Shown: positions 17,009 through 39,234 of the stretch, piece after piece
How the letters are laid out: every line of letters begins with the position of its first letter
Numbering within the stretch: position 1 is the stretch's first letter
Assembly (NCBI RefSeq): GCF_024679095.1
Contig: NW_026112164.1
Location: forward strand, 497,074 to 561,073
Reading direction: 5' to 3'
Length of the DNA: 64,000 nt
Source: Eriocheir sinensis
Taxonomy: Eukaryota; Arthropoda; Malacostraca; Decapoda; Varunidae
Translations under genes and position numbers: made by a program
The notes under the pieces: generated by a model
What the model was told of the DNA's origin: nothing
Databases searched by the model: none
Seen by the model: only the letters and a program-made list of their open reading frames with translations

Positions 17009-17220
17009 GTGGGAAGAAGAAGACCGTGAGGAGGAGGAGGAGGAGGAGGAAGAGGAGAGAGGGAGATAGAGAAAAGGATAAAGGGGTCGATAATGAAGAG
17101 AAAAAGGGAAAGGAAAAGAAAAAGATGAGGATGAAGAAGAAGAGGAGAAGGAGAAATTGAAGAGAAAATAAGAATGAAAAGAGAAAAAATAGGAAGAGAA
17201 GAGGGGAGGAAAGGGCATAG
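17009..17220. repeat. GA/GGA-rich low-complexity DNA
   Basis: AGGAGG and GAAAAG runs. The right ~60 bp also occurs before the second copy of the downstream locus (near 25425-25485). Confidence 0.8.
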
Positions 17221-17241
17221 TAGTAGTAGTGTACTATAGTC

Positions 17242-17706
17242 TGTTCAAAGTCAGAGTTCCTCTGGCGCCTAGGCAGCATTTTTAACGACGCACCTGATTG
17301 GCTGGGCTCCCCCCTCGGTTCTCGCCCCGGTTGGCTTGCTTCCTCTCCGCCTCTCGTGGAGGCGACAGTCACTCAGACAAGTCAGACATGCTCTTGGTGG
17401 TAAATGTTTCTTATATTATTTGCCTCGGGTCACATTGTACAAGATAGGCTGGTCAATTATACTTAACACCGTTATACGAAGCAGTGATTGCAGACCATAA
17501 ATATGCTTGTCACAACTCATTAAAACAAAAAGTAAACAAATGAGGACGAGTATAAGTGAAGGAACGGGTCTGAAACGTTTGTAACACTTTCACATATTTG
17601 CAGCAAATATTGAGTCAGTGCTAATACAAACCATTGCATGCTATAAAGAATCAGGAGCGTCATTACAAACGCTGCCTGGGGCCAGAGGAACACCTACTTT
17701 GAACAC
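17242..17706. mobile_element. TIR element Z, intact (LTR-empty) copy
   Basis: About 465 bp with inverted ends: left TGTTCAAAGTCAGAGTTCCT then CTGGCGCCTAGGCAGC; right GCTGCCTGGGGCCAGAGGAA then CACCTACTTTGAACA. The similarity extends inward through AACGACGC and CCTGATT to about 60 bp. Just inside the left end is a short GC-rich stretch with one CCAAT box (AGCCAATCAGG on the minus strand), which is the seed of the 33-bp minisatellite seen in the copy at 20130. No transposase frame is present. No target duplication is identified. Confidence 0.75.
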
Positions 17707-19674
17707 TTTTTTTAATGGCTCCGTGCAAGAGCAATGATGAAATGGGAAGAAGAGAAAAAAGATGAAAAGAAGGGAGAGAGGGAGGAAAGAAGCAAGTTCC
17801 CGCTTTCGTCATCGGCCGCCATCAACACAGCCGTCTCCCCCTCAACAAAACCCTCGCCTCTTTTCACCATCTCACATTGTCCTCAGCACAACATTTCCCT
17901 CTCGATGCACCATCAGCTGTATTTTCTTTTTGTTTGGGTTAAACTGTTGGTTTGGACGCAACCATCGGTGTGGCGAGAGCCCGTCCTGGTCCGGACCTGG
18001 CGGCCCCAAGGAGAGCACCGCCTCCCTTCTGCACTTGGGGAACCCCCACCCCACGAGGCCGTGTTGCTCCTGGCCACCGAGCCACTCCTCCGCCACCACG
18101 ACCACGGCGGCCCTCACCACGCCCTGGCCGTCCACGCCAGCAGCAGCAGGAGGGACTACGCCACCACCCTCCACCGCGGACTGCACGACCCACCGCGGCG
18201 ATGTGTGTGTGTTCGTCCTGTCTTCATCGTCGTCTTTGTCAGACTCGCGGCTCCTCCCACCGCCATAGTCACCTGTATGTTCGTCCTGTCTTCATCGTTG
18301 TCTTTGTCCCGACTCGCGAGTCAATTGTATGTATGTCATCATGTGAATGTGGGGCCGCTGCCCCCGCCGCCCCTGCCGACGCCCTCCCCCTTGGCAAGGA
18401 CGGTGTATCATCATCATCATGTGAATATGGGGCCGCTGCCCCCGCCGCCCCTGCCGACGGCCTCCCCCTTGGCAAGGACGGTGTATCATCATCATCATGT
18501 GAATATGGGGCCGCTGCCCCCGCCGCCCCTGCCGACGGCCTCCCCCTTGGCAAGGACGGTGTATCATCATCATCATGTGAATATGGGGCCGCTGCCCCCG
18601 CCGCCCCTGCCGACGGCCTCCCCCTTGGCAAGGACGGTGTATCATCATCATCATCATCATGTGAATATGGGGCCGCTGCCCCCGCCGCCCCTGCCGACGC
18701 CCTCCCCCTTGGCAAGGACGGTGTATCATCATCATCATCATCATGTGAATATGGGGCCGCTGCCCCCGCCGCCCCTGCCGACGGCCTCCCCCTTGGCAAG
18801 GACGGTGTATCATCATCATCATCATCATGTGAATATGGGGCCGCTGCCTACGCCGCCGCTGCCGACGGCCTCCCCCTTGGCAAGGACGGTGTATCATCAT
18901 CATCATCATCATCATGTGAATATGGGGCCGCTGCCCCCGCCGCCCCTGCCGACGGCCTCCCCCTTGGCAAGGACGGTGTATCATCATCATCATGCCGACG
19001 CCTCCCCTTGGCAAGGACGGTGGATCATCATCATCATCATCATCATCATGTGAATATGGGGCCGCTGCCCCCGCCGCCTCTGCCGACGGCCTCCCCCTTG
19101 GCAAGGACGGTGCATCATCATCATCATCATCATGTGAATATGGGGCCGCTGCCTCCGCCGCCCCTGCCGACGGCCTCCCCCTTTGGCAAGGACGGTGCAT
19201 CATCATCATCATTATGTCATCATCATGTGAATTGGGGCCGCTGCTCCCGCCGCCCCTGCCGACGCCCTCCCCCTCTGCAGCGACGGCGTCCCCGTCATCA
19301 TCTGAGCCTGTCCATGGGTGTGGGGGTCCTCCTCCCCTTCCCCCAGACCTAGGCGAGGCTCTCTCTTCCTCCGGTTACACTTTTCTCTTACTATACTAAA
19401 CAGCCCTTAGCCCATTTTAATCTTCCCATAACTGTTGGTTTTCAATTATCGTTCTTTCCACAGTAACAAAACAATTAAGCTTCAGACACAGCCACGGGTA
19501 CACACAACTGTCTCTGGACGCACGCCCAAACACTGCCCTGGACGCTGCTTCCTTTACGTCCGCGTGTTGGTTGCAGTTTCGACCTTTTTATGTTGACGGA
19601 CTGATAAGCTGTGCAGCAGCAGCGAAGCGGTGTTGTGGCTCTTAACTTAAAGGAGGAAATAATGGCAGCACCGC
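17677..19674. repeat. Duplicated segment S2, copy 1, with (CAT)n/GC minisatellite
   Basis: Nearly identical to 35548-37383 outside the array. The array (18337-19290) has about 11 full units and one short unit. Each is a GC-rich core (GGGGCCGCTGCCCCCGCC through CCCCCTTGGCAAGGACGGTG) followed by a variable (CAT)n run. The core and CAT lengths are mostly multiples of three, so three plus-strand and two minus-strand frames remain open. Frame-breaking units (near 19000 and 19181) and the lack of a conserved frame argue against a gene. The segment ends GGAGGAAATAATGGCAGCACC. Confidence 0.8.
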
Positions 19675-21733: not shown

Positions 21734-24600
21734 TCAGTTTACTCCCGACGCAGCGAAATGACAGTCGATTCTATATTCGAAGGAGTCGATGGTATTCGCA
21801 TTTACTACTTCTGAGGGAAGATTGTTCCAGTGGCGGATGTCTCGGTTTGAAAAGAAACTCCTTCCAATGTCTGTGTTACATCGACTCGACTGAATGAGTA
21901 AACCGTTATTTCTAGTTCTTGAGTTGGTTCGCAGTTCAAAGAATTTGGAGTAATCGACGTTATTGAACTTTTTCAGATACTTGAAGACTTGAATCATATG
22001 CCCTCGTAGGCGTCTTTTCTCCAATGTAAAGAGATTGAGTCGCTTTAGTCGTTCCTCGTACGGTTGAGCCCTTAAGGTTGGAATCATCTTTGTGGCGCGT
22101 CGTTGAATCCTTTCCAGTAAAGCAATGTCCTTTCTGTAATTAGGAGACCAGAACTGTACTGCATACTCGAGGTGCGGTCTTACCATGGAATTATACAAGG
22201 ATAGCATCACGTCTGGTGTTTTACACTCGAAGTTCCTCGCTATGAACCCGAACATAGTGTTGGCTTTGTTGTATGCTCTTTTACAGTGATTCGCGTGTTT
22301 CAGGTCACTGCTGATAGTGACTCAAAGATCCTTTTCCTCCTGCATCGCCTGCAGAGGTTTACCATTCATGATGTATGTGTGGTTACTATTTTGGGACCCA
22401 ATGTGCATGACTTTGCATTTGTCAACATTAAAAGACATTTGCCATTTTTCCGACCATTCGATAATGTGATTGAGGTCTTTCTGAATGATTTTGCAGTCGG
22501 TCTTTGTGAGGGCTTCTCCAGTCTCCACCCACCTTGGTGTCATCTGCAAATTTCGATATTGTGGATTTCAGTCCTGATTCTAGGTCATTGATATATATGA
22601 TAAAGAGGATGGGTCCCAGCACTGACCCTTGAGGCACTCCACTAGTGACTGGAATCCAATCGGAAGGCTGTCCGTTGAGTAGTACTCGTTGTTTTCTGTC
22701 GGTGAGCCAATCTCTTATCCACGCGATCAGATTGGCTCCAATGCCCGCCGAGTGCAGTTTCTTAAGGAGTCGCTCGTGCGGTACCTTGTCGAAGGCTTTC
22801 TGAAAGTCCAGGTATTTAACATCACTGGGGATGTGGGCATCCCAGTTCTTATATATACCTTGGAAGAAGTCTAATAAATTCGTTAGGCAGGAGCGCTTGT
22901 TTCTGAAGCCATGCTGGGTGTCGGAGATTATATTATTGTTTTCTAGAAACTTAACAAGTTTATCTCTAATAATCTTTTCGAGTATTTTTCCTGCCACCGA
23001 TGTCAAACTTATGGGCCTGTAGTTTAATGCAACGCTTTTGTCTCCTTTTTTGAAAATCGGTGTTACATTCGCCATCTTCCAGTCTTCCGGGACCTTGTTT
23101 AGTTGAACTGACCTGTTGAATATGTTAGTGAGTGGTTGAAGTATTTGTTGTTTAAGCTCTTTTAATAAACGCGGGGACAAACTGTCGGGTCCCGTTGACT
23201 TGTTCGTGTCGAGTTTTGTCCAAGTACTTTTTTACTTCTTGGTCGCATATTGAGTCAATTTCCAGGGGCGTGATCTCACTCGGCGGGTCAGGGCCCTCGG
23301 GAATGGTTTCGATGTCCTCGACTGTGAATACGGATGCGAAGTTACTGTTGAGGATTCTGGGCATCTGTTTACTGTCCTGAGTTACAGATCCAGTCTCGTC
23401 TGTCAGGGGACCAATATTGGATTTTACTTTCTTTTTCCATCTTATGTACGTGAAGAATTTCTTGGAGTTTGTTTTGATTTCGCGCGCTATTTGCTTTTCT
23501 TAGTTGCGTTTGCTACTCCGAATAAGGCTGTGACAAGCTCTGAGGCTGTTGTGGTACTGTGTGCTGGCTTCGGCCGTAGCATTCTCTTTCATCAAATTAT
23601 AATTCCTTTTTTTTAGGTTTACTGCCCTTTTTATTTCTCTGGTCATCCACGGTGGATCTGCGGCCCCATTTACTCCCCTGGATTTCGTAGTCACTGTAGC
23701 CTTCCCTACCTGGAACAGCTTATCTTTGAAGACGTTCCACGCGTTGTCGATTGTATTGTCGGTGATGTCAAGTTGGTCCCAGGTCGTAGGGGGAAGCAGC
23801 GCACGGGCTAAGTTGAAATTTCCTTTTTTGTAATCTGGTATCGCTAACGGATTATCTACGAGTTTGTGACATATGTTGACATTAAAACGGATTAAGTGGT
23901 GATCGCACCCATTAAGTTTCTCACCAACTGTACAGTCGCGAATGAGGTCGGGGTCGCTTACTAATACCAGATCCAGCAGATTGTTTTCTCTTGTTGGTTG
24001 AGTTACAACTTGAGTGAGGAACGAATCCTCCACCATTTCTATAAGCCTGTTACCTCTTGATCTCCAGTCATCAATACCCAGTCAATGTTAGGGCAATTAA
24101 AGTCCCCAATTGTAATTGCTTCCTTGCTTTGTGTTAGAGAGTGAATCTCTTCGTAGAGGGCAGTGTCATCGGCTGCCTGTTGTTTCGGAGGCCTGTATAC
24201 GGTTGCAAGTGTTAGTCTATTGTTATTTGTGGTTATTTCCACATAGACAGAATCGTATTTCTCTGCGTCCTGTTTGTCTACTTTTATGGCAGGGAGCGTA
24301 CTTTTTACGTAGCAAACTACTCCTCCTCCTTTCTTGTGCTTTCGACTTTTGTGGAAGCTTTCGTACCCACGGAATGACAGTTCGGATTCTAGATGTGCAG
24401 AGTTGGCCCAAGTCTCTGTGATGGCTACCACATCTGGTTTCTCTGTTGCGGTATACGCCCTAATTTCGTCCTTTTTTGGGTATTAAACTATGTGCATTTG
24501 TGTACATGATAGAAATGTGACCCCTGTTTTTGCCGTGACGAGTTGTACCAGTTCGCTTGTCGGAGGCGTCGTTAGTTACACAGTTTCTTGTGAGTCGCAC
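21734..24600 (-). pseudogene. LINE ORF2: endonuclease and reverse transcriptase, multiply frameshifted
   Basis: The polyprotein starts with a basic stretch, then IMYTNAHSLIPKKDE. Endonuclease: ITETW, KKGGGVVCYVKS, YDSVYVEI, TVYRPPK, GDFNCPNIDW and CDHHLIRF. Linker: [77 protein letters not shown] and the catalytic FADDTK. The C-terminal part has VRPHLEYAVQFWSP and RHWNNLPSEVVNA. In target-primed reverse transcription the endonuclease nicks DNA and the RT copies the LINE RNA. Frame breaks occur near 24040, 23500, 23180, 22530 and 22320-22255, so the gene is dead, although all catalytic motifs are still legible. The stop is at 21734. Confidence 0.9.
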
Positions 24601-24615
24601 CGACGCTACGGGTTG

Positions 24616-24790
24616 GTTGATCAAGGGCTGTCTTTGCCCCGTCCTCGCCCGCCGTTTTTTGAAAGATTTTTCAAAAAGCTTTTCACTGCCTCGTCCATAA
24701 GCCTCCCGAAACGAGCCGAACCAACCTCATTCAGGTGTAGTCCATCGTTTCAGAACAAGTCTGAACGCTCAAAGAAGTGGTGTCAGGCAT
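24616..24790 (-). pseudogene. LINE ORF1 C-terminus (SGNH block V)
   Basis: Minus-strand frame with HFFERSDLF, an in-frame TGA, then NDGLHLNEVGSARFGRLMDE and a Lys/Gly/Arg-rich tail ending in a TGA near 24616. The Asp and His of DGLHLN correspond to the last catalytic block of the SGNH hydrolase domain, as in DGHHLN of the first LINE. The rest of ORF1 is absent. Confidence 0.75.
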
Positions 24791-25349
24791 TTGTAGAAGG
24801 AAGAGGAGAAGGAGAAGTAGGTGGAGGAGGAATAACAAGATGAGAAGCAGGAAGAGGAAAGAGGAAAAAAAAAGGAATAAAACAAACAAATAAGGAAAAC
24901 GAGCAAGAAGAGGAAGAGGAAGAGGAGGAGAAAGAGAAATAAAAATAAACAGGATGACGGAGGAGTACCAGAAGGAAGCGAAAGAGGTAAAAGAATAATA
25001 AGAATAACAAGCGAAATAAAGAAGGAAGAGGAAGAAGAATAATGACCAAAGCGAAAAAGGAAGAAGGAGAAGAGAAGAGAAAACAAATAAAAACGAGTAA
25101 GATAATGTAGAGTAAAGAAGAATAAGAATAAGAGGAAGAAGACCAGGAAGAAGATAAAGAAAAGGAAGAGGAAGAAGAAGATGAAGAGGGAGAATGAGGA
25201 AAGGGAAGCGTGAGAGATGGAAGAAAAATAAGGGAAGGAGGAGAAGGAAGGAGGGGAAAGAGGAAGAAATAGAGAAAGAAAAGAAAATGATGAAGAGGAT
25301 GAAATCGAAGAGAGAAAGGAAAAAAAAAAGGAAGAAGAAAGAGAAAGAG

Positions 25350-25424
<75 letters not shown>
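24791..25424. repeat. GA-rich low-complexity DNA and (GA)n array
   Basis: AGAAGG/GAGGAAG-type sequence with a pure (GA)n run at 25352-25424. Long minus-strand frames (Leu/Ser/Phe-rich) are compositional. Confidence 0.85.
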
Positions 25425-25427
<3 letters not shown>

Positions 25428-25511
25428 TGAAGAGAGAACAGAAATGAAACGAGAAGGAATAGGAAGAGAAGAGGGCAGGAAAGGGCATAGTAGTAGTAGT
25501 GTACTATAGTC

Positions 25512-25942
25512 TGTTCAAAGTCAGAGTTCCTCTGGCGCCTAGGCAGCATTTTTAACGACGCACCTGATTGGCTGGGCTCCCCCCTCGGTTCTCGCCCCGG
25601 TTGGCTTGCTTCCTCTCCGCCTCTCGTGGAGGCGACAGTCACTCAGACAAGTCAGACATGCTCTTGGTGGTAAATGTTTCTTATATTATTTGCCTCGGGT
25701 CACATTGTACAAGATAGGCTGGTCAATTATACTTAACACCGTTATACGAAGCAGTGATTGCAGACCATAAATATGCTTGTCACAACTCATTAAAACAAAA
25801 AGTAAACAAATGAGGACGAGTATAAGTGAAGGAACGGGTCTGAAACGTTTGTAACACTTTCACATATTTGCAGCAAATATTGAGTCAGTGCTAATACAAA
25901 CCATTGCATGCTATAAAGAATCAGGAGCGTCATTACAAACGC
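25512..25942. mobile_element. TIR element Z, copy split by the LTR retrotransposon
   Basis: Identical by eye to 17242-17675. It is interrupted inside its right TIR at GCTGCC; the missing terminus (AGGGGCCAGAGGAACACC, CTTTGAACAC) is found directly after the right LTR at 35548. Confidence 0.85.
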
Positions 25943-27177
25943 TGCCGCCAGTTTTAGACCCTTCTTTTCTTGTATTAAATCAACTCTTTTATCACTCATT
26001 AATTACTCCATAAATGATCTCACCGTCTCGTATCCCTGGAAGCGTGATCCGGCTTAAGTTGTTATTGGAGACTGGTGTTCGGGGATAAACAAGGGAAAAA
26101 GAAAATATACATTTATTTAAAATTAAATGAAAGTAATTGACTTACGAAATATTCTTTGCTCAGACGATCATAACACTGGCATATTCAGCAATGGATGCAA
26201 CATATGACAAACGACATGTCTTAAACATAATACTACAATATGTGCTCAGTTGTTGCCAATAATAATAACACTCGTCGTTCCACAAGCAGTGGTTTGTATC
26301 TCTCTGCTTACATCACAATCATTATGTACTCTCTTCACAAAATCCTACTACACATTCCTATAGTATAATCTACTACAAGTCACGGAAGCACCAAATACCA
26401 CACCCAGTGCTTTTACCTTTGCTTTACATCGCAAACAAATAATCACAGTCCTGTCCCACTCACAATCCTACTTCACATCTCCTACATTATAATCTCCAGG
26501 ACAATACAGTCGGTTTCCCTTAGATTCTCGAATTTCTACTCACGATTAAGATCACAACAGCCATCCTCGGCTGAGTGAGTAGCAGGTCTGCTTGAGGCGA
26601 GAACCAAGCTCGGTCTACTCATACCACTGATCTCTAGGCCACATTTTTCTTTGCTTTAGGCGGACTTACATCCTTGACACGCCCTTAATTTTCTACATAA
26701 CCAATGGCCAATACTTCCTGTCACACCCATCTGCTCGCTCATTATGTTGTATTGTTTTACTTCTGCTATTCGTGAGTCAGTCTTAAGACACTCCCACAGT
26801 GATTTTTCTGTTAAATTATTGGCTCATAACATGTCGCCACGACTGACGTCACGGATCAGAGTCTTTTTCAATGGTTGTTCACACTTTCTGACCACGCCCA
26901 CTGGGTATCTGTTTTATGTATCTGAGTCTGGGTATCTGTTTTCCTTTACCCTCGTTGTTTCCCCTCTTTTGTACTTGAGATGTTTACACTGTTATATATG
27001 TCACCATTCTTGTTAGTGTTTGTCCTGTCAGATGTTTACACAGTTGTATATCTCTCATTCCTCTCTGGGTATCTGTTTTTCTTTATCCTCGTTGTTTCCC
27101 CTCTTTTGTACTTGAGATGTTTACCCTGTACTGTTATGGCTATTCCTCTTGTTTGTTCGTTTTCTGGTTCCTGACAT
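25943..27177 (-). repeat. 3' LTR
   Basis: In element sense it starts TGTCAGGAACCAG next to the polypurine tract and ends CTAAAACTGGCGGCA. The outermost bases are ambiguous by a few positions because the flank shares GGCAGC with the end. It matches the right LTR over its full length. Confidence 0.9.
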
Positions 27178-27190
27178 ACTTCCCCTTCCG
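27178..27190 (-). other. Polypurine tract
   Basis: Minus strand GGAAGGGGAAG directly upstream of the 3' LTR, the expected plus-strand primer position. It fixes the inner LTR border. Confidence 0.75.
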
Positions 27191-27220
27191 GAAGATCTCG
27201 CCCCTGAGATCTCACAGGTG

Positions 27221-28970
27221 TTAGTGGAGAAGATACTCGTTGCAATGTCTGCAGTTGGCTTGAGTCTGAAGTATGCAGCGTCGTGCGTAGCGCAGGACAT
27301 AGGAATACCCCACGGCAGACGTCACCAGCAGTAGAACCAGGATCACGACAATGGCGAAGACAATCCACCAATGGATTACGGGTTGAAAGGGCTGATCCGG
27401 CTCGACCACAGAATTGAGGGGCTGCAAGCCAGCTGTTAGCTAGTGTAAGGGGATGGACTCAGCACTGCGAAGAGAACCTTGCCGAAGCGTCAATATACCA
27501 CTACCCGTCAAGCTGACAGTATGTCTGTTTACAGGTTATGGCATGTGAGTGTCAGAGTGATGGGGGAGGCAAGTGAACAGGTCCAGTAGCCAGGACCTTT
27601 TATAAACATAGGGGGAAATGTTTTCAAGACTATTGTGCGGCAGAGGTTGATCACTGACTCATGTTTCAAGAAAGCAGCCGATTCACAAGAGGCTGCGTTA
27701 CTAGCCTCATAGACGGGGCCTGTGGGAGGACAAACTAACATATGGTTATTCTTGTTACAGTGTTTTATACTAGAAAGCAGAAAATATATTTTCCTATTCT
27801 CACTGAAGGCAATACATCTTGAATCAACACTATACATAAGAAAGTAAGTGCTATTCTGCACAGAAAATGGAAGGGAGTCGATTCGAAAGACATCAAAGGT
27901 GTCAATCGGATCTCCTCGCAAAGGTTTGGTGAAATAGAAATTACGAGAATCGTGCAAAGCCGTTGTCCTGGAGGACAGTTATTACATCCCTATATAGAGC
28001 TAAAAAATCAAGAACTGCAAGGCACAAAAGACCTGGAGGCCGAGCCTAGGCTTCCTTTAATGTACTGAACAACTGTTTGTTTCACATAATGGTTGGAGTT
28101 ATGTATGTTTGCAGGGGAGCCTGCAGACTCAAATATAAATCTTGTATACCTGGTCTTATGTGTCTCAATGCTAAGTCAAAATATAACAATTCTTGTCGGA
28201 GCTTTTTTCTCTTCCTAATGCCATAGTCTATAGTAAAATGGCGCACAACTTGGTTCAATACATCTACAGCTGAATATAGCCTATTAAAGGCAGATTGCAT
28301 GGCATGCATATTACTTAATGATGTTGAGTTTTCCATAATAAACATTTAACTATATAAAATCTTTCTCAGTTAATGACTCTAGTCCTCTATTTTTTCATGA
28401 ATAGCATCAACTTGAGCCTGGGTCGCGGTACCAAATAGGTTATTAGACAAGGATCTTCAAAAAAAATATTTCCCGTTTTTTTCCCTTTTTTTTTCTATAA
28501 TTCATAGAAGCATGCAGCTTGTTTTGAATAGTAGTCATCACATAGCCTAAAACTTTTCTTAGATGATGCAACAATGAACTGAATTCGTTTTCAAAATTAA
28601 AGAGTGTGTATTTTTTTTTTTTTTCCTTTTACAGCTGGATACTCAGGTGACATTTGAATAACATTTCAAGTAACGAAGCAGTTAAAATCCGTGCTTTATA
28701 TAATGCAGCTAAAACATCTTCTGTAAGGCTAAACAGTACTATAGTCTCTATCTGTGAGGACTATAATATAGAGAGTATGTTGGTGTGAAACTTTGGCCAG
28801 CATGTGTTGGGGACTCCTGTTGTGTCATTGAGTAGTACACCGAAAGAGTCAAATCAATCTGTGGTTTATTTCGTCATATTTCCGCTCAATTATTGCATTT
28901 TCATCCTTATGCATTATTCCTGTTCTATATCGTATTAGTTTTGAAATTACATTAGGCAACTCTTGTACCG
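27221..28970 (-). pseudogene. env: Envelope-like glycoprotein region of the LTR element, fragmented
   Basis: Several minus-strand frames lie between integrase and the 3' LTR, the position of env in errantiviruses. A fragment at 28345-28082 is helical. The one at 27957-27529 has a Cys-rich ectodomain-like pattern with an FDVFRIDSLPF motif and conserved-looking Cys. The last (27427-27221) has a strongly hydrophobic segment (VIHWWIVFAIVVILVLLLVT) followed by a short basic, Cys-containing tail, which fits a C-terminal membrane anchor. The arrangement resembles the F-type fusion proteins of errantiviruses and baculoviruses. Stops and frameshifts separate the parts, and the upstream portion to about 28970 is poorly legible. 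Assignment rests on position, the membrane anchor and motif resemblance. Confidence 0.65.
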
Positions 28971-29114
28971 TCGAAGAGCGAAGGCTTTATCTATGCCGAG
29001 GTGGCTCTGAATGTTTGGGAGTAACCTGAGAAGGTAGGGCCTGTGCATCAGCTGTTTATTGCTGTTGTAGAACGAACATTATTTAATGTATCATGAGTAG
29101 CAGTCACCTCTCCG

Positions 29115-30540
29115 CTACGAGATATAATTTTCCGTAGAATTTTTCTCAGCGATTTCACGGTTGAGCAATGCAAAGAATAGATCAGTGTCTGTCTCTGGAT
29201 TTAAAGGGTATGCTCGCCTAATCGTTGGACATTGCTGCACATCAATGCAATCTTCATGAAGAACTTTTACTATATCTGTGGGGGCCGTTGAAACCTTACT
29301 AGTCATGAGGTTCCTAATTTTTACCATTATATCACTGATCTTCTCTATTACCCTGTAGGGTCCATCAAAAATAGGTTGCAACTTTTTCTTTTCTTTTCTT
29401 TTTGGTGTATGTTTGAGGAACACTCTGTCGCCAACGTTGATAGTTTTGATTTTTGTAACTTGGTAATACTTTTCCATTTCTTCTCTACTTTCTTCATTGT
29501 AAACCTGGCATCTATCATAAACTTTATTTGCAACTGCAGCCATTTCCTCTTCATAGGAGTCAATATCATAAACTTTCCTTGCATTACATCCATTTCCTCT
29601 TCATGGGAGTAAATATCATAAACTTTCCTTGCAATTGCAGTCATTTCCTCTTTATAGGAGTAAATATCATAAACGTTCCTTGCAAATACAACCATTTCCT
29701 CTTTATAGGAGTAAATATCATACCAGGGCTGCTGAATTTTTTTCTAACATAGTGTAGGGTACAGGAGGATCTCTAAAAATCCTCTCTCTATCTCTCTCGA
29801 TAAAATGGGGACTCCTTTATGGTGCGATAATACGCAGGATTATAGGCCAAGATGTCTATAAGTAGCATTATATCCCAAACGGACACATTTCCTAGAACAT
29901 TCTCCTCAAAATGTTAACAACAGTATAATTTGCGCGCTTTATTATTCCATTTCCATTTGTATGGTAAGCCGTTATTCGCGTGTCGCACAGGTAGCTTCTA
30001 ATTTATCTCCTGCATCACGGAATTAACGAACTCTGAACCTTGACCTGTAACAACTGTCTGAGGAACACCGTGTACACAAACAACATCCACGTACAACGCC
30101 CTTGCCATCTCGCGGGCTTCCTTACTTCGTAAGGGTACTATAATCAAATACCTTTTAAAAACATCAACTATGGGCATTACGTATCGAACCCCATTGTCCG
30201 ATACACCCATGGGACCCACAAGGTCCATGTGTATTCTTCCAAAAGGAGCGGTGACGTCTGGATATTGCCGCCAAGGAGCAGGGTGCAAGTTCCCAACTCA
30301 CTTTTAAAACGACTACCATGACGCACTTCCTTACATAATTTTCTACATCCCGTTTCATTCCAGGCCAGAAAGCGAACTTTCTACACCGACATAACGTAAC
30401 TTTGGTTACTCCGTGCCCTGCAGTGGCGACGAATGAGCCAGAGTTATCGCCTTGGAAATACTTGGGGGGTAGAATCACCACCTTAGTGGCTTCTCCGTAC
30501 GGACTCACTAAAACACATCATTTATTTCCACCTGTAACTC
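29115..30540 (-). pseudogene. pol: Integrase of the LTR element, broken
   Basis: In element order there is an H2C2-like N-terminal finger region (AGHGVTKVTLCRCRKFAFWP, GMKRDVENYVRKC), then the catalytic core with FGRIHMDLVGP, where the first Asp is kept. VVTGQGSEFVN follows, where the usual second catalytic Asp (TDQGSEF) is replaced by Gly. The C-terminal domain has GDRVFLKHTPK and FDGPYRVIEKI, the GPY/F-type module. The core and C-terminal parts are in different frames. The intervening region contains a 51-bp tandem repeat (29541-29743). The protein could not be active. Confidence 0.85.
29541..29743 (-). repeat. 51-bp (17-codon) tandem repeat within the integrase region
   Basis: Four units of 50-51 bp. 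On the minus strand they encode variants of KVYDIYSYKEEM with a variable dipeptide. One unit is one base short, which shifts the frame. The last unit merges into the normal integrase frame. Confidence 0.85.
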
Positions 30541-30775
30541 TGACAGGGGCGGCATCTCACATTATGCCCATCTTCAACACAATATAACATAATTTCCACC
30601 TGTACCTCTAACAGGGGCGGCATCTCACATTATGCCCATCTTCAACACAATATAACACATTTTCCACCTGTACCTCTAACAGGGGCGGCATCTCACATTA
30701 TGCCCATCTTCAACACAATATAACACAATTTCCACCTGTACCTCTAACAGGGGCGGCATCTCACATCATGCCTTT
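30526..30775. repeat. 68-bp tandem repeat between RNase H and integrase
   Basis: Four units, exact 68-bp spacing (TTCCA at 30526, 30594, 30662, 30730), each with CACCTGTACCTCTAACAGGG and GCGGCATCTCACATTATGCC. As 68 is not a multiple of three, the expansion disrupts any pol frame here. Confidence 0.9.
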
Positions 30776-31089
30776 TTTCTCTGAGTCTTTGCTCAATTTT
30801 CATTCATGGGGTTTCCTTCTTTTAGCATACTTATATGCTGGCTGCTCATCATGCAGCTCACTAATCTCCTGAATACTCTAGTCAAGTGTGTGGCCAATAC
30901 ACTCACTATTCAGGTTCATACATATATTTTATTTTCTCATCTTTCGGCGCCTGTTTCTTTTTCTGCACTAGTGCAGTACCTTGCCCCTCATTATCCACGT
31001 GTTCCACGGTTTTTGTTGTTCCCCATCCACAAACATTATCGCGCGTTTCCTTCTAATTCAATCTCAGTGTCCTGTGAGCCTTCATCCTT

Positions 31090-32340
31090 GATAAAAAAAA
31101 TCTGCTACTATATTTTCATTGCCAGGCAAATGATTGATTGTAAAACCATACTCACTCATGAGAGTCTGCCATCTCCTGCCGTTGGGACTAGCTACCTGTA
31201 ACAACCATACTAAAGGTCTGTGATCCGTGTGGATCTCAACAGGGTAACCCAGTATTAATGGGCGGTTTACGTGTAACCCATAAATTACTGTTAAAGCCTC
31301 TCGTTCAACTATATTGTTCCGCTGTTCTGCCGTATTCAGTTTCTCACAAAAAAAGATACAGGTCTTAGTTTATCATCATTATCCTGTTATTGCAATACTC
31401 CACCAGTATTGTAGTAGGATACGTAGAGTGACTGTACCAAGCATTCTATCCTTAAGGGTTGAGAACGCAATTTTTGTTTCATCCGTCCATATGAGTGGAG
31501 TTTTAATTATTTATTTATTTATTTATTTATTTTTTGTGTACCTTTCTTCCCTTTGTAAATCTTTAGAAAAGGAGCAACAATTTGTGAATAATTTGCAATA
31601 AATTTGCGATAATAATTAGTCAATCCAAGAAATGACTGTAAATCATGAACAGTTTGAGAGGCCGGGACGTTTTGTATGGCCTCCAGCTTGCTAGACTGAG
31701 GTCTTATTCCCTCTGAGCGGATGGCATGGCCCAGGTAATCTACTTTGTCCTTAAAAAAGTTACACTTCTCCATCTTAAGAGTCAGTTTGGCTTCCTTTAA
31801 GCGATCCAGAATTTGTTCTAAGTTATCTGCGTGATTAGAAAATATTTCGCCCAGGATAATTATGTCATCAAGGTACACCTGAACCTTGTTGCTTAATAGT
31901 CCTGTAAGGACAGTGCTTATTATTTTCTTGAAGCAGGACGGGGCTGTTTTAAGGCCAAAGGGGAGGGAAGTAAATTCCCAATGTCCTGCTGGAGAAGAAA
32001 ATGCCGTCCTCTCTCTGCTGATTTCATCTTGGGGGATTTGATGGTAACTCTGTTTCAAGTCTAGGCATGAAAAAAAACTTACTATCTCCCAATTGATTGA
32101 GTATGGTAGTTATATTAGGGAGTGGGTACCGGTCGTCCCGTAGTGTTTTATTAAGTGCCCGGAAGTCCAGACAAAGTCGTAGTACTCCATCTTTTTTTGC
32201 ACTGGGATAAGTGGGGCATTATAGGGTGATCGCGAAGGGCGAATCACACCCTGTTGCTGGAGCGATATAAGTTGTTCATTTACTCTGTCATGATAACTGA
32301 TAGGAATGTTATATGGACGCCTGTACACTACTTCATCAGT
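31090..32340 (-). pseudogene. pol: Reverse transcriptase and RNase H of the LTR element, broken
   Basis: RT: VYRRPYNIPIS, GVIRPSRSPYNAPLIPVQKK, then in a second frame HQIPQDEISRERTAF, FTSLPFGLKTAPSCF and the catalytic YLDD, followed by CNFFKDKVDYLGH and LQSFLGLTNYYRKFI. These are standard Ty3/Gypsy RT blocks. RNase H follows after a (TTTA)n interruption at 31501-31535: NTAEQRNNIVEREAL and EIHTDHRPLVWLL with acidic residues kept, then HLPGNENIVADF. Frame changes occur near 32060-32160 and 31520, with further stops around 31370-31430. The order RT-RNase H-integrase is that of Ty3/Gypsy. Confidence 0.9.
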
Positions 32341-32417
32341 GTTTTGCTTGATGGTGCTTAAAAAAATAGGGCGTTACTGTTAATGGTTCTTGTTCTGTGG
32401 AAAACACTGTTATATAT

Positions 32418-33330
32418 TTATCTATTAAGGACTTTAAAACCTGATTCTCTCTCTTCACTTGGGAATTTAGCGTCAACAATTTGATAGAGGCTTTTCTTCC
32501 TTACTTCAAGCTCTGCGGGCTTCGAGTCTGTTTTAGCTGTGTCAGCGGTCTGTACACTAGATACTTGTGGCAGATCAGCGTATAGCTCATGAGTGACAGG
32601 CTTCACAAATCCTAACGTTGTATTATCATCTATCTTTACACTCACTTTCAATATTCAAGTACGGCACAGTGACATAAGATCTTTGATTGTCAGATGAAGG
32701 GGTTAACTTAACTATCCCTGAGCACAAGACTCTAGCCTGATGAGTACTAATACAAGGTTCAAATAAAGCTTCACTTGCCTGTAGTTGCGTCACTAGCGTT
32801 ATGTAACCTGCAACAGATGCATGCAGTTGCAAAGGTTCCGCTGCTTGCCAACGTACGGCCTTATTTTCAGTGAGACCTTCTTCATTTCCATCTACATTTA
32901 GCTAAGATCCTTCACCTCTAGATATAAGACATATTTTTCCTGGGATAATTGTATGGTTTCCCCTTCTATTATCAGTTTTAAGCTTCGTTCTTTTGTTCCT
33001 CATTTAGTTGCAATGTTTTCAAAATAATCTCGTGCTACACGACAAATCAGTATTCAGCATAATATGAGTTGGCAAATCTACATCGCGTGTTATCAATAAG
33101 TCTTGGAAACTACTATTTCCTTCCATATTAACTTGTCTTTTACCGTCATTTTCAATATGGTATCTTTGCACAGAGACAATATTCACGGGTTTCGCTTCAC
33201 AGTTATTTACTGCGAGCCCTAATTCTTTAATAAATTCATCCGTTAAAAACTCACACACGCTCCTGGTTCTAGGAGCGCTGCCACTTTTGCATATGTGTTA
33301 TCATGAGTAGTGGATCTGCCTACCAAAGTT
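32418..33330 (-). pseudogene. pol: Protease and pro-RT linker remnant of the LTR element
   Basis: Near 33300 a retropepsin-like site appears as ALLEPGACVSF, where the D-T/S-G triad would be expected, followed after a frame break by LTDEFIKELGLAV. Downstream frames (33258-33019, 32832-32626, 32651-32418) form a linker to the RT without known motifs. The altered triad and frame breaks indicate loss of function. I cannot say whether the altered triad is ancestral or a later mutation. Confidence 0.55.
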
Positions 33331-33344
33331 ACTCTTGAGTTATG

Positions 33345-33600
33345 TTGATTATAGCCTTCTTTTCATTATTTTTAAGGTCACTCCCTTGTTCGTTATAGCC
33401 TTCTTTTCCTTATATTTATGTGAGGCGGTTACTCCCTTCTTCGTTATAGCCTTCATCTTATTATATTAAAGGTTACTCCCTTCTTCGTTATAGCCTTCAT
33501 CTTATTATATTAAAGGTTCCTCCCTGTTTTGTTCTTCGCTCATTTTCCGTTTTTTCCACTGCAAGTGTGCATATTTATTTATTTATTTATTTATTTTCAT
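33345..33600. repeat. ~50-bp tandem repeat and (TTTA)n
   Basis: Four units with CGTTATAGCCTTC and GGTTACTCCCTTCTT, followed by (ATTT)n at 33567-33597. This is where gag coding sequence would be expected, and none is legible. Confidence 0.75.
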
Positions 33601-33845
33601 TTGTTTATTTAATGTTATTTGTAGTAGATAACTGAGGGGGGCACTACCCTGGCCTCCTCTTCCTCTGATTCTCTTACTTCACACATTTATCTTAATACTT
33701 CACACTATTGTCCATATGCTTCATTTTTTTATTTTTTATTCATGACTTTTTATCCATACCTCACACTTTTCTTAGTATTTCACATTTTTTCTAGATCATA
33801 CTCTACACTTCCTACCTGGGGGACGCGGGTTAGGCCTTTATAAAG

Positions 33846-34115
33846 TCACTCTATGGCTGCATGTCCGCCGCGGCACACCACCACCCTGTGAGGCGTAGAG
33901 CCCCGTGCTCCCCTCCATCCTGGGGTAACAATCCTAAAACAAACAAACCTGAGAGGCAGGACGCTGCCGCTGCCTGTCACCTGACACCCTCTCACTGATG
34001 AATGGATCGCGGCGCGGTGGAGAGACTGCCCATCCCTTTCCACTCCGCCCGGGAAGGAACTCATGAATTCTCGGTTGAGTCGCGTGTGCTACCCATTGCA
34101 CTACAGAACAACAGT
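33846..34115 (-). mobile_element. Degenerate tRNA-derived SINE (family 1 like)
   Basis: On the minus strand TCTGTAGTGCAATGGGTAGC resembles an A-box and GAATTCATGAGTTCC a decayed B-box. The 33846 end reads GCGGCGGACATGCAGCC. It occupies the place of gag in the LTR element and, being inside it, inserted later or was carried along. Confidence 0.5.
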
Positions 34116-34301
34116 GGTTGGCCAGAGTTTCCATTACCATATCGTCAAAGTCCATGTCCTCCGGAAGAACCATTAATTATATAATTAAATCGTCACTATT
34201 ATTTCCGCCACTTAAAACGAGCAAAGCTTAATGAAAATAAGAGGCGTTTTCTCGTCAGAGTAAATTAAACAAAAGCATTGTAAGCACATGTCCCTATTTA
34301 T

Positions 34302-34320
34302 CCCTATACCGCTGCCGCCA
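34302..34320 (-). other. Primer-binding-site-like sequence
   Basis: Minus strand TGGCGGCAGCGGTATAGGG at the inner edge of the 5' LTR. It resembles the complement of a tRNA-Leu 3' end (from family knowledge, one mismatch in the first 13 positions by memory). The first bases overlap the LTR end. Confidence 0.5.
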
Positions 34321-35547
34321 GTTTTAGACCCTTCTTTTCTTGTATTAAATCAACTCTTTTATCACTCATTAATTGCTCCATAAATGATCTCACCGTCTCG
34401 TATCCCTGGTAGCGTGATCCGGCTTAAGTTGTTATTGGAGACTGATGTTCGGGGATAAACAAGGGAAAAAGAAAATATACATTTATTCAAAATTAAATGA
34501 AAGTAATTGCCTTACGCAATATTCTTTGCTCAGACGATCATAACACTGGCATATTCAGCAATGGATGCAACATATGACAAACGACATGTCTTAAACATAA
34601 TACTACAATATGTGCTCAGTTGTTGCCAATAATAATAACACTCGTCGTTCCACAAGCAGTGGTTTGTATCTCTCTGCTTACATCACAATCATTATGTACT
34701 CTCTTCACAAAATCCTACTACACATTCCTATAGTATAATCTACTACAAGTCACGGAAGCACCAAATACCACACCCAGTGCTTTTACCTTTGCTTTACATC
34801 GCAAACAAATAATCACAGTCCTGTCCCACTCACAATCCTACTTCACATCTCCTACATTATAATCTCCAGGACAATACAGTCGGTTTCCCTTAGATTCTCG
34901 AATTTCTACTCACGATTAAGATCACAACAGCCATCCTCGGCTGAGTGAGTAGCAGGTCTGCTTGAGGCGAGAACCAAGCTCGGTCTACTCATACCACTGA
35001 TCTCTAGGCCACATTTTTCTTTGCTTTAGGCGGACTTACATCCTTGACACGCCCTTAATTTTCTACATAACCAATGGCCAATACTTCCTGTCACACCCAT
35101 CTGCTCGCTCATTATGTTGTATTGTTTTACTTCTGCTATTCGTGAGTCAGTCTTAAGACACTCCCACAGTGATTTTTCTGTTAAATTATTGGCTCATAAC
35201 ATGTCGCCACGACTGACGTCACGGGTCAGAGTCTTTTTCAATGGTTGTTCACACTTTCTGACCACGCCCACTGGGTATCTGTTTTATGTATCTGAGTCTG
35301 GGTATCTGTTTTCCTTTACCCTCGTTGTTTCCCCTCTTTTGTACTTGAGATGTTTACACTGTTATATATGTCACCCTTCTTGTTAGTGTTTGTCCTGTCA
35401 GATGTTTACACAGTTGTATATCTCTCATTCCTCTCTGGGTATCTGTTTTTCTTTATCCTCGTTGTTTCCCCTCTTTTGTACTTGAGATGTTTACCCTGTA
35501 CTGTTATGGCTATTCCTCTTGTTTGTTCGTTTTCTGGTTCCTGACAT
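34313..35547 (-). repeat. 5' LTR
   Basis: The same length as the left LTR, with about eight base differences by eye (for example near 34375, 34410, 34445, 34488, 34510, 35225 and 35375). That is roughly 0.6 percent divergence, indicating a recent insertion. Confidence 0.92.
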
Positions 35548-37383
35548 AGGGGCCAGAGGAACACCTACTTTGAACACTTTTTTTAATGGCTCCGTGCAAG
35601 AGCAATGATGAAATGGGAAGAAGAGAAAAAAGATGAAAAGAAGGGAGAGAGGGAGGAAAGAAGCAAGTTCCCGCTTTCGTCATCGGCCGCCATCAACACA
35701 GCCGTCTCCCCCTCAACATAACCCTCGCCTCTCTTCACCATCTCACATTGTCCTCAGCACAACATTTCTCTCTCGATGCACCATCAGCTGTATTTTCTTT
35801 TTGTTTGGGTTAAACTGTTGGTTTGGACGCAACCATCGGTGTGGCGAGAGCCCGTCCTGGTCCGGACCTGGCGGCCCCAAGGAGAGCACCGCCTCCCTTC
35901 TGCACTTGGGGAACCCCCACCCCACGAGGCCGTGTTGCTCCTGGCCACCGAGCCACTCCTCCGCCACCACGACCACGGCGGCCCTCACCACGCCCTGGCC
36001 GTCCACGCCAGCAGCAGCAGGAGGGACTACGCCACCACCCTCCACCGCGGACTGCACGACCCACCGCGGCGATGTGTGTGTGTTCGTCCTGTCTTCATCG
36101 TCGTCTTTGTCAGACTCGCGGCTCCTCCCACCGCCATAGTCACCTGTATGTTCGTCCTGTCTTCATCGTTGTCTTTGTCCCGACTCGCGAGTCAACTGTA
36201 TGTATGTCATCATGTGAATGTGGGGCCGCTGCCCCCGCCGCCCCTGCCGACGCCCTCCCCCTTGGCAAGGACGGTGTATCATCATCATCATGTGAATATG
36301 GGGCCGCTGCCCCCGCCGCCCCTGCCGACGGCCTCCCCCTTGGCAAGGACGGTGTATCATCATCATCATCATCATGTGAATATGGGACCGTTGCCCCCGC
36401 CGCCCCCGACGGCCTCCCCTTAGCAAGGACGGTGTATCTACATCATCATCATGTGAATATGGGGCCGCCGCCCCTGCCGACGCCCTCCCCTTGGCAAGGA
36501 CGGTGTATCATCATCATCATCATCATGTGAATGTGGGGCCGCTGCCCCCGCCGCCCCTGCCGACGGCCTCCCCCTTGGCAAGGACGGTGTATCATCATCA
36601 TCATCATCATGTGAATATGGGGCCGCTGCCCCCGCCGCCCCTGCCGACGCCCTCCCCCTTGGCAAGGACGGTGTATCAACATCATCATCATGTGAATATG
36701 GGGCCGCTGCCCCCGCCGCCCCTGCCGACGGCCTCCCCCTTGGCAAGGACGGTGTATCATCATCATCATCATCATCATCATCATGTGAATATGGGGCCGC
36801 TGCCCCCGCCGCCCCTGCCGACGGCCTCCCCCTTGGCAAGGACGGTGTATCATCATCATCATCATGTGAATATGGGGCCGCTGCCCCCGCCGCCCCTGCC
36901 GACGCCCTCCCCCTTGGCAAGGACGGTGCATCATCATCATCATCATATCATCATCATGTGAATATGGGGGCGACGCCCTCCCTCTCTGCAGCGGCGGCGC
37001 TCCCGTCATGATCTGAGCCTGTCCATGGGTGTGGGGCACCTCCTCCCCTTCCCCCAGACCCAGGCGAGGCGCTCTCTTCCTCCGGTTACACTTTTCTCTT
37101 ACTATACTAAACAGCCCTTAGCCCATTTTAATCTTCCCATAACTCTTCGTTTTCAATTATCGTTCTTTCCACAGTAACAAAACAATTAAGCTTCAGACAC
37201 AGCCACGGGTACACACAACTGTCTCTAGACGCACGATCAAACACTGCCCTGGACGCTGCTTCCTTTACGTCCGCGTGTTGGTTGCAGTTTCGAGCTTTTT
37301 ATGTTGACGGACTGATAAGCTGTGCAGCAGCAGCGAAGCGGTGTTGTGGCTCTTAACTTAAAGGAGGAAATAATGGCAGCACC
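35548..37383. repeat. Duplicated segment S2, copy 2
   Basis: Starts with the missing right end of element Z, then matches 17677-19674. The minisatellite (36207-36990) has about ten units, several with internal deletions (36373-36480) that break the frames open in copy 1. It ends at the same GGCAGCACC, after which a 13-bp minisatellite begins. Confidence 0.85.
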
Positions 37384-38348
37384 ACGCCTCCACACCACGC
37401 CTCCACACCACGCCCCCACACCACGCCTCCACACCACGCCCCCACACCACGCCCCCACACCACGCCCCCACACCACGCCTCCACACCACGCCTCCACACC
37501 ACGCCCCCACACCACGCCCCCACACCACGCCCCCACCACGCCTCCACACCACGCCCACACCACGCCCCCCACACCCCACACCACGCCCCACACCACGCCT
37601 CCACACCACGCCCCACCACGCCCCACACCACGCCTCCACACCACGGCCCCACACCACGCCTCCACACCACGCCTCCACACCACGCCCCCACACCACGCCC
37701 CCACACCATGCCTCCACACCACGCCACCACACCACGCCTCCACACCACGCCCCCACACCACGCCTCCACACCACGCCTCCACACCACGCCTCCACACCAC
37801 GCCCCCACACCACGCCTCCACACCACGCCCCCACACCACGCCTCCACACCACGCCCCCACACCACGCCACCACACCACGCCACCACCACGCCTCCACACC
37901 ACGCCTCCACACCACGCCTCCACACCACGCCCCCCCACCACGCCTCCACACCACGCCGCCCCCCCCCGCCGCCCCACCCCGCCGCCACACCCCGCCCCCA
38001 CACCACGCCTCCACACACCCCCACACCACGCCCCACACCACGCCTCCACGCCACGCCCCCACACCACGCCGCCCACACCACGCCCCCACACCACGCCTCC
38101 ACGCCACGCCCCACACCACGCCTCCACACCACGCCCCCACACCACGCCTCCACACCACGCCCCCACACCACGCCTCCACCGCACGCCCCCACACCACGCC
38201 TCCACACCACGCACCCACACCACGCCTCCACACCACGCCTCCACACCACGCCTCCACACCACGCCTCCACACCACGCCTCCACACCACGCCCCACCACGC
38301 CTCCACACCACGCCTCCACACCACGCCTCCACACCACGCCTCCACCAC
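37380..38348. repeat. 13-bp minisatellite (CCACACCACGCCT)n
   Basis: About 75 units of 12-13 bp, variants CCACACCACGCCC and CCACACCACGCCT. No stop codons are possible in most units, giving several long frames (His/Pro/Thr-rich on plus, Gly/Val/Trp/Arg-rich on minus), none credible. Confidence 0.95.
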
Positions 38349-39234
38349 AAGCTGCACTAAGGCTCAGCACTCCCCCCTCCCCCCCAAGTTGCCCATTCCC
38401 CCTTCTTCACCTTCCTATCACCTATTATTCTCAGTTCTTTCTTTCCTTCCTTCCTCTCACCGTCTATCTATTCAACTATCAGTCTATCAATCTATCTCTC
38501 CTGTTATCTCCTTCCTTTCTTCGTCTACTCGCTAAAGTGGTCAATCTGGCTTAATATATTTTCTTTTTGCCTTTCTCTTTCAACTAAGGCTCAAACATCC
38601 CTTCCTCTCCTTTCTCCCCCTTTCTGAGCCAGCCATTTCCCCGTCTTCACCTTCCCATTACCTCGCTATTATCCTCTTTTCCCTCAAGTTAGGCTCAAAC
38701 ATCCCTTCTTCTCCTTTCTCTCCCTTTCTGAGCCACCCATTTCCCCGTCTTCCCCTTCCATTACCTCACTATTAACCTCCTTTCCCTCAGTACTAACCTC
38801 ATCCCCTTTCCCCCAGCTCCCCTTTCTCAAATAGCCGTCCGTTCCATCTTTTTCACCTCCCCATTACCTCACTATTATCCTCTATTCCCTCAAAAATAAC
38901 CTCATCCCCTTCCCCCCAGCTCCCCTTTCTATAATAACCGTGCATTCCACCTTCCCATTACCTCCTCTTCCCCTCTTTCCCCCGCCACCGCCGCGTCCTC
39001 CCCGCCGCCGCTTCAGGCCAAACAAAACAACCCCGGTGATGCCGCGCTGTTAAATTAAATGTATAATATTTGATTCTATTCCGCCGCCTTCACGCGCATC
39101 GCCGCTCCGTAAAGGCGTCTTCTATTTAGAACACTGATCAGCTCTAGATCACTGGCCCGGATCTGAATCTGATCTGGATTCGCTTTGGTTAAAGAGAATG
39201 CAGAGCGACAGATCAAAATAAAGCGCGCGCCCGC

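What the first reader, a model, noticed from the sequence alone, without database searches (positions are those of the whole stretch)
25943..35547. Young env-bearing Gypsy element inside another transposon
LTRs of equal length with about eight differences, a polypurine tract, a PBS-like site, Gypsy pol order and an envelope-like region with a membrane anchor next to the 3' LTR. The low LTR divergence contrasts with a heavily broken interior that has no legible gag, 51-bp and 68-bp tandem expansions and a SINE. This suggests it was copied in trans by an active relative after its interior had decayed, or that the interior decayed unusually fast. Errantivirus-like elements in crustaceans are sparsely described.
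Basis: partly seen in the sequence, partly recalled or inferred. Interest (0 to 1): 0.78.

Follow-up and report, generated by a model that had tools for sequence, protein, structure and literature searches.

The report
Broken crustacean retrovirus copied by relatives
This is one of probably several hundred near-identical copies of a crippled retrovirus-like element in what looks like a decapod crustacean genome; its genes were already broken before it was copied, so intact relatives in the same genome very probably copied it, much as a defective endogenous retrovirus family is thought to spread in cattle.

Summary
The element is real and lies on the minus strand: LTRs at 25952-27176 and 34322-35546 (1225 bp, 8 differences) around separate RT, RNase H, integrase and baculovirus-F-type env pieces in Gypsy order, without gag. 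Hundreds of candidate copies exist (317-376 per interior piece; the 40 scored each time are 97-100% identical). At ten stop codons, other copies carry the identical stop in 258 of 267 comparisons. Three of four other copies examined have their own 4-bp target duplications, and in 5 of 5 copies the two LTRs are each other's nearest relatives, so the damage predates the copying. Variable sites fall evenly on codon positions (no visible constraint). A sister lineage with 93-96% identical LTRs keeps gag and env frames, and two of its copies have pol frames of 1385 and 1422 aa; by candidate counts it is about 4.5 times rarer. 'Decayed unusually fast' is rejected. At this locus the 3' LTR runs 12 nt into a copy of the primer-binding side, the only exact case in the assembly: gene conversion or end-joining. 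A new member of a known kind, in a little-studied host group.

The parts
34322..35546 (-). 5' LTR (element sense is minus): TGTC...AAAA, 1225 bp
   Evidence: self-comparison, boundaries from other copies, tree
25952..27176 (-). 3' LTR, 8 substitutions from the 5' LTR
25940..25951 (-). 12 nt after the 3' LTR that repeat the 5'LTR-PBS junction; the only exact case in the assembly of this LTR end plus PBS core followed by a base other than G
34310..34321 (-). one base plus PBS-like site TGGCGGCAGCG (tRNA not identified)
27179..27189 (-). polypurine tract GGAAGGGGAAG, then TA, then the 3' LTR
33250..34158 (-). family-specific 5' interior where a gag-bearing copy has gag; no gag match
33349..33525 (-). 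44-bp tandem array; arrays of that period in 23 of 29 other RT loci (units not compared)
32421..33320 (-). remnant of the protease region, in three pieces
   Evidence: protease-bearing frame of another copy aligned here
31522..32109 (-). RT fragment (RVT_1 positions 69-205), 196-aa frame bounded by inherited stops
31085..31369 (-). RNase H fragment
30524..30772 (-). 68-bp tandem array; arrays of that period in 22 of 29 other RT loci (units not compared)
30167..30517 (-). integrase H2C2 fragment
30001..30297 (-). integrase core (rve) fragment, in another frame than the H2C2 fragment that it overlaps
29513..29722 (-). 51-bp tandem array; sharing with other copies not established, the loci ending near it
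   Evidence: arrays of period 50-52 in 5 of 29 other RT loci, units not compared
29118..29600 (-). integrase C-terminal SH3 fragment
27532..27978 (-). env fragment, Baculo_F (F-type fusion protein), bounded by stops shared by 29 of 29 other copies
27308..27364 (-). env membrane anchor, in a separate frame
   Evidence: the same stretch is seen in the relatives P0002 and P0003
17646..17706 (.). uninterrupted paralog of the insertion site
35547..35550 (-). CCTA, the left half of the expected 4-bp target-site duplication

Best explanation
This is a member of a large non-autonomous (D-type) family of F-env Gypsy/Metaviridae elements. A source element lost gag and acquired stops and frameshifts in pol and env. 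Its RNA, carrying functional LTR, PBS and PPT signals, went on being packaged, reverse-transcribed and integrated by proteins made elsewhere, most likely by a sister lineage (A-type) with matching LTRs and intact genes. Shown: the lesions are inherited, the copies are separate retroposition products, the broken frames show no codon constraint, and relatives with matching LTRs and open gag, pol and env frames exist. Inferred: that those relatives supply the proteins, and that they do so now.
For: Stops: 258 of 267 aligned comparisons at ten stop codons are identical in the 29 nearest other copies of each of two regions (23 of 290 comparisons did not align). Copies: interior pieces give 376, 367 and 317 first-look candidates; the 40 scored each time are 97-100% identical. 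Retroposition: 4-bp TSDs in 3 of 4 other copies; paired LTRs are nearest relatives in 5 of 5 copies; LTR pairs differ by 3 to 18 substitutions. Neutrality: variable sites by codon position 70/71/60 (p = 0.58), against 30/26/64 among ten intact env frames (p = 2e-5); Fisher p = 3e-5. Helpers: 34 of 72 scored Baculo_F matches lie in frames of 484-807 aa without an internal stop, some of them in more distant lineages; the LTRs of seven such copies are 93-96% identical to the defective LTRs over 600 bp; two of the seven also have pol frames of 1385 and 1422 aa, and a copy with an LTR only 83-86% identical has one of 1428 aa; a gag frame with zinc knuckle, 71 candidates for its DNA.
Against: The stop-sharing sets are the copies closest to the window copy, so they favour sharing. 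No expression or mobilisation data exist. One of the four other copies (C62) has no matching TSD. The codon contrast is weaker when like is compared with like: env alone is 14/10/16 in D copies against 30/26/64, Fisher p = 0.20, and the seven closest intact env frames alone are 18/21/31, p = 0.14. The one A-type pol stretch that I fetched is itself frameshifted. More distant lineages (about 70% RT identity, five pol frames of 1339 aa) could also be the helper. D and A differ by about 25% in the middle of env but by about 3-12% in RT and 4-7% in the LTR, so the D interior is probably a mosaic.
Confidence: 0.85

Rival explanations
1. The copy was intact when inserted and its interior decayed unusually fast while LTR-LTR gene conversion kept the LTRs alike.
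For: The 3' LTR end carries a copy of the 5' LTR-PBS junction, which gene conversion could explain; 6 of 8 LTR differences lie within 142 bp, p = 0.002.
Against: The stops are shared by copies elsewhere. Private interior substitutions are 0.62% against 0.33% in the LTRs, p = 0.13, with 2 private indels. All 8 LTR differences are private point changes, three in the 5' and five in the 3' LTR.
Confidence: 0.03
2. The many copies are segmental or tandem duplications of one dead element, not retroposed.
For: Two copies on contig C295 lie about 9.56 kb apart in the same orientation, as a tandem would; one of four copies has no TSD.
Against: Separate target-site duplications in 3 of 4 copies; paired LTRs are nearest relatives in 5 of 5 copies; copies lie on many contigs.
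Confidence: 0.04
3. The shared frame breaks are systematic assembly errors, for example at homopolymers.
For: Some indels between D copies and an A-type copy sit in short homopolymers.
Against: The counted lesions are stop codons; env and pol frames of 484-1428 aa are open in sister copies of the same assembly; even codon positions in the D copies.
Confidence: 0.04
4. For this one locus: microhomology-mediated end joining of unintegrated cDNA, rather than normal integration followed by gene conversion, made the 3' junction.
For: No TSD; the 3' LTR runs into 12 nt of PBS side closing in a 7-bp match GGCAGCG with the target; TA at the other end matches both the PPT-LTR junction and 14 of 20 empty sites. 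It is the only such exact junction in the assembly.
Against: With the commoner target form (14 of 20 paralogs read CCTAGGCAGCG) the left junction is exactly what integrase would leave with a 4-bp duplication CCTA; only the right CCTA is replaced, as gene conversion from the 5' LTR-PBS junction would do.
Confidence: 0.4

Closest known systems
Bovine ERVK[2-1-LTR] C- and D-type elements (PMC10924933; abstract and passages seen)
   Same: A defective clade with no functional genes outnumbers a competent clade (85% to 15% there; about 317 to 71 first-look candidates here), and trans-complementation is inferred.
   Different: Vertebrate retrovirus, with de novo insertions observed directly; there D is a ~6.8-kb form, here D keeps long but broken pol and env and no gag.
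Insect endogenous retroviruses with F-type envelope, genus Errantivirus (ICTV profile PMC7879559, whole text seen; PMC12992720, passages seen)
   Same: Gypsy gene order, env downstream of integrase, F-type env related to baculovirus F, 4-bp TSD (insect TSD recalled).
   Different: Probable decapod host; this family is coding-defective; clade membership not tested; LTR ends TGTC...AAAA.
VL30, ETn/MusD and similar trans-mobilised LTR families (recalled; VL30 paper PMC4859993 seen only in a search listing)
   Same: Non-autonomous elements spread with proteins of a related autonomous family.
   Different: Vertebrate elements with different interiors.
Troyka LTR retrotransposons, reported from decapods (PMC12440569, abstract and passages seen)
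   Same: LTR retroelements present in shrimps, with non-autonomous members in some animals.
   Different: 3-bp TSD, CG...CG ends, no env.

Membership tests
Metaviridae (Ty3/Gypsy) | LTRs with PBS and PPT | tested here: met
   the primer tRNA was not identified (searches did not complete)
Metaviridae (Ty3/Gypsy) | pol order protease, RT, RNase H, integrase | tested here: met
   (protease seen as a remnant)
Metaviridae (Ty3/Gypsy) | gag present | tested here: not met
   this copy is a gag-less derivative, while a relative with matching LTR keeps a gag frame
Errantivirus (F-type env Gypsy) | env of baculovirus F type downstream of integrase | tested here: met
   window piece 37.5 bits; two intact relatives 98.5 and 96.8 bits, one of them also matching a solved 'fusion protein' at E 1.6e-5; env is broken in this copy
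Errantivirus (F-type env Gypsy) | RT falls in the monophyletic errantivirus clade | not tested
   no named reference set was at hand; among the 120 relatives listed of 226, the organism names shown are decapods and insects
Non-autonomous LTR family mobilised in trans | coding lesions older than the insertion | tested here: met
Non-autonomous LTR family mobilised in trans | coding-intact partner with matching LTRs in the same genome | tested here: met
   gag, pol and env all open in one copy was not shown
Non-autonomous LTR family mobilised in trans | RNA packaged and copied by the partner's proteins | not testable with these tools
   needs particle RNA or a mobilisation assay

The most novel reading that the evidence does not exclude
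A decapod crustacean hosts a two-tier system like that of cattle ERVs: a rarer, coding-intact, F-env retrovirus lineage and a hyperparasitic gag-less lineage about 4-5 times as numerous that lives on it, so that competent/defective dynamics arose independently in a vertebrate retrovirus and an invertebrate Gypsy retrovirus and may be a general fate of endogenous retroviruses.
Probability: 0.65. Interest if true: 0.62.

Novelty: new member of a known kind. Interest (0 to 1): 0.5.

Why it matters
It offers an invertebrate case in which the defective family, its probable helper and their relative numbers can be read from one genome, so the idea that defective copies outcompete and extinguish competent endogenous retroviruses can be tested outside vertebrates. 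F-env Gypsy elements are well studied in flies. Among the papers listed by the searches (2 of 2; 15 of 462; 12 of 21; 10 of 50; 8 of 32), no title or shown start of abstract describes such a system in decapods. [quoted passage not shown]

Tried and rejected
A SINE private to this copy: not found; in 27177-29478 and 30000-33550 the only window-private insertion is 5 bp. Plus-strand coding: no Pfam match above cut-off in the 14 plus-strand frames scanned, of 18 interior ones of at least 60 aa. My first reading of the right junction as a target deletion (from the single paralog at 17676) was dropped after 20 empty sites showed two forms. A patch of foreign LTR as the cause of the clustered LTR differences was rejected: all are private changes. 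A wholesale LTR swap onto an old interior, suggested by 95% LTR against 85% env identity, was softened after the walk showed RT at 88-97% and the middle of env at about 75%. Other PBS-retaining 3' ends: 28 further LTR ends all run on into interior sequence, five of them with small changes, and the exact pattern occurs nowhere else in the assembly. An Rfam search of 24000-38500 gave nothing above a gathering score. The surrounding repeat: 41 matches listed from 184 candidates, some spaced about 8-9 kb apart; nearby minus frames carry RVT_1 and endonuclease domains of a non-LTR retrotransposon, but that they belong to the same element was not shown. Other ORFs of the flanks gave no Pfam family above cut-off. 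The number of intact LTR-PBS junctions and the primer tRNA were asked for but did not complete (see below).
Full report
What is there. The element runs on the minus strand. Self-comparison gives two direct repeats with 8 mismatches and no gaps. Comparing ends with other copies fixes the LTR as TGTC...AAAA, 1225 bp, at 34322-35546 (5') and 25952-27176 (3'). After the 5' LTR comes one base and then TGGCGGCAGCG, a PBS-like site; before the 3' LTR lies GGAAGGGGAAG and TA. Pieces searched one by one against Pfam give RT (1.5e-25), RNase H (2e-13), H2C2 (2.8e-9), integrase core (6e-11), SH3 (3.5e-7) and Baculo_F env (1.5e-9), all on the minus strand and in Gypsy order. A protease remnant lies upstream of RT. 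The first 348 aa of a gag frame from a copy with matching LTR (zinc knuckle 3.5e-4) find nothing in window 32000-34700 at E up to 10, and DNA homology to that copy stops about 160 bp past the 5' LTR. A strong membrane anchor is at 27308-27364, in another frame than the env piece.

A family with inherited damage. Three interior pieces each find hundreds of first-look candidates in the 1.77-Gb assembly (env 376, RT 367, 5' interior 317); the 40 scored each time, the window copy included, are 97-100% identical to it. At ten stop codons that bound the broken frames, the 29 nearest other copies per region carry the identical stop in 258 of 267 aligned comparisons; of the other nine, 5 are sense codons, 2 another stop and 2 gaps; 23 of 290 comparisons did not align. 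These sets are the best matches to the window copy, which favours sharing. Arrays of period 68 are in 22 of 29 and of period 44 in 23 of 29 other RT loci, units not compared. So the damage and at least these arrays belong to the family, not to this copy.

The copies were made by reverse transcription after the damage. Of four other copies whose two ends I read, three have a 4-bp duplication of their own (CAGG, ATAT, TTGA) and one (C62) has none. In a tree of LTR stretches, the two LTRs of the same copy are nearest relatives in 5 of 5 copies, four with starred support and one with 92/92 (locus L006 was dropped before the tree because its match was too short). LTR pairs differ by 8 (window), 6, 3, 18 and 3 substitutions; the last four also have gaps.

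No fast decay. Window-private interior substitutions are 36 of 5831 sites, with one private 5-bp insertion and one private deletion; the LTRs have 8 of 2450; Fisher p = 0.13. Each of the 8 LTR differences is private to one LTR, five in the 3' and three in the 5'; six lie within 142 bp, p = 0.002, unexplained.

No visible constraint in the broken lineage. Variable sites over RT, RNase H, H2C2, integrase core and env pieces are 70/71/60 by codon position, and the parsimony-informative ones 18/23/20. The SH3 piece could not be counted. Ten intact env frames from the same genome give 30/26/64 and 19/13/47, a significant contrast to all D pieces together (Fisher p = 3e-5). The contrast is weaker in narrower tests: env against env is not significant (14/10/16, p = 0.20), and the seven intact frames closest to each other show 18/21/31 (p = 0.14; against all D pieces p = 0.04). 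So the lack of constraint in D rests on its even counts; constraint in the intact type is clear between its sublineages, not within the youngest one.

A probable helper. Of 72 scored Baculo_F matches in the genome, 34 lie in frames of 484-807 aa without an internal stop. Over a 600-bp LTR stretch, seven of the ten fetched are 93-96% identical to the defective LTRs and two are 83-86%; the tenth (L069) has only short LTR matches. The defective LTRs form one branch (100/98) beside the seven. A protein search with an RT frame of this type listed 149 matches; among those with at least 95% identity, three lie in pol frames of 1385, 1422 and 1428 aa, and each of the three copies also has an env frame of 484-628 aa; two of them are of the matching LTR type, the third (1428 aa) of the 83-86% type. 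Five frames of 1339 aa exist at about 70% identity, so other helpers are possible. The window copy's own match contains 3 stops. Not every A-type copy is intact: the one pol stretch I fetched is frameshifted. A gag DNA piece gives 71 candidates (of 40 scored, 22 at 98-100% and 18 at 95-96%) against 317 for the defective 5' interior; these are first-look counts, not exact copy numbers.

The locus itself. Twenty uninterrupted paralogs of the insertion site were read: 14 have the form CCTAGGCAGCG (one of them with a further base change upstream) and 6 CCAGGCAGCG in element sense, as has the paralog inside the window. The left junction reads CCTA then the LTR start, as normal integration with a CCTA duplication would. 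On the right, CCTA is missing and CTGGC, the start of the 5' LTR-PBS junction, stands in its place before the target's own GGCAGCG. An exact search for the LTR end plus PBS core followed by a base other than G found this place alone in the assembly. Gene conversion from the 5' LTR-PBS junction, ending in a chance 7-bp match, or microhomology end-joining of unintegrated cDNA would both give it; I lean slightly to conversion.

Comparison. In cattle, the ERVK[2-1-LTR] clade has 15% competent and 85% defective elements, and new insertions are dominated by defective ones, supposedly by trans-complementation (PMC10924933, abstract and passages). The present family has the same layout in a Gypsy element with F-type env. 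The host is probably a decapod: the crustacean names among RT relatives are Petrolisthes, Penaeus and Portunus, insects being named too; the assembly itself is unnamed. Clade membership in Errantivirus was not tested; ICTV itself notes that env presence does not define that genus well (PMC7879559).

Noticed in passing
window 26005-26147: Six of the eight LTR differences fall within 142 bp (p = 0.002), all private point changes in one LTR or the other; cause unknown.
   Followed up: partly
window 17097-19672 and 25360-37383: The surrounding repeat exists as two units about 8.3 kb apart here (92-97% identical by piece), and at about 8-9 kb spacing on some other contigs, beside minus-strand RVT_1 and endonuclease frames of a non-LTR retrotransposon.
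   Followed up: partly
G000 contig C295, L055 and L056: Two defective copies about 9.56 kb apart in the same orientation, as if a tandem sharing an LTR.
   Followed up: no
window 28193-29193 against L069-L078: The middle of env is only about 73-79% identical to the intact relatives while parts on either side reach 90-95%, which suggests an env mosaic.
   Followed up: partly
L040, element sense position 74: An LTR end followed by 10 nt of the PBS region and then unrelated sequence: perhaps an interior deletion starting in the PBS.
   Followed up: no
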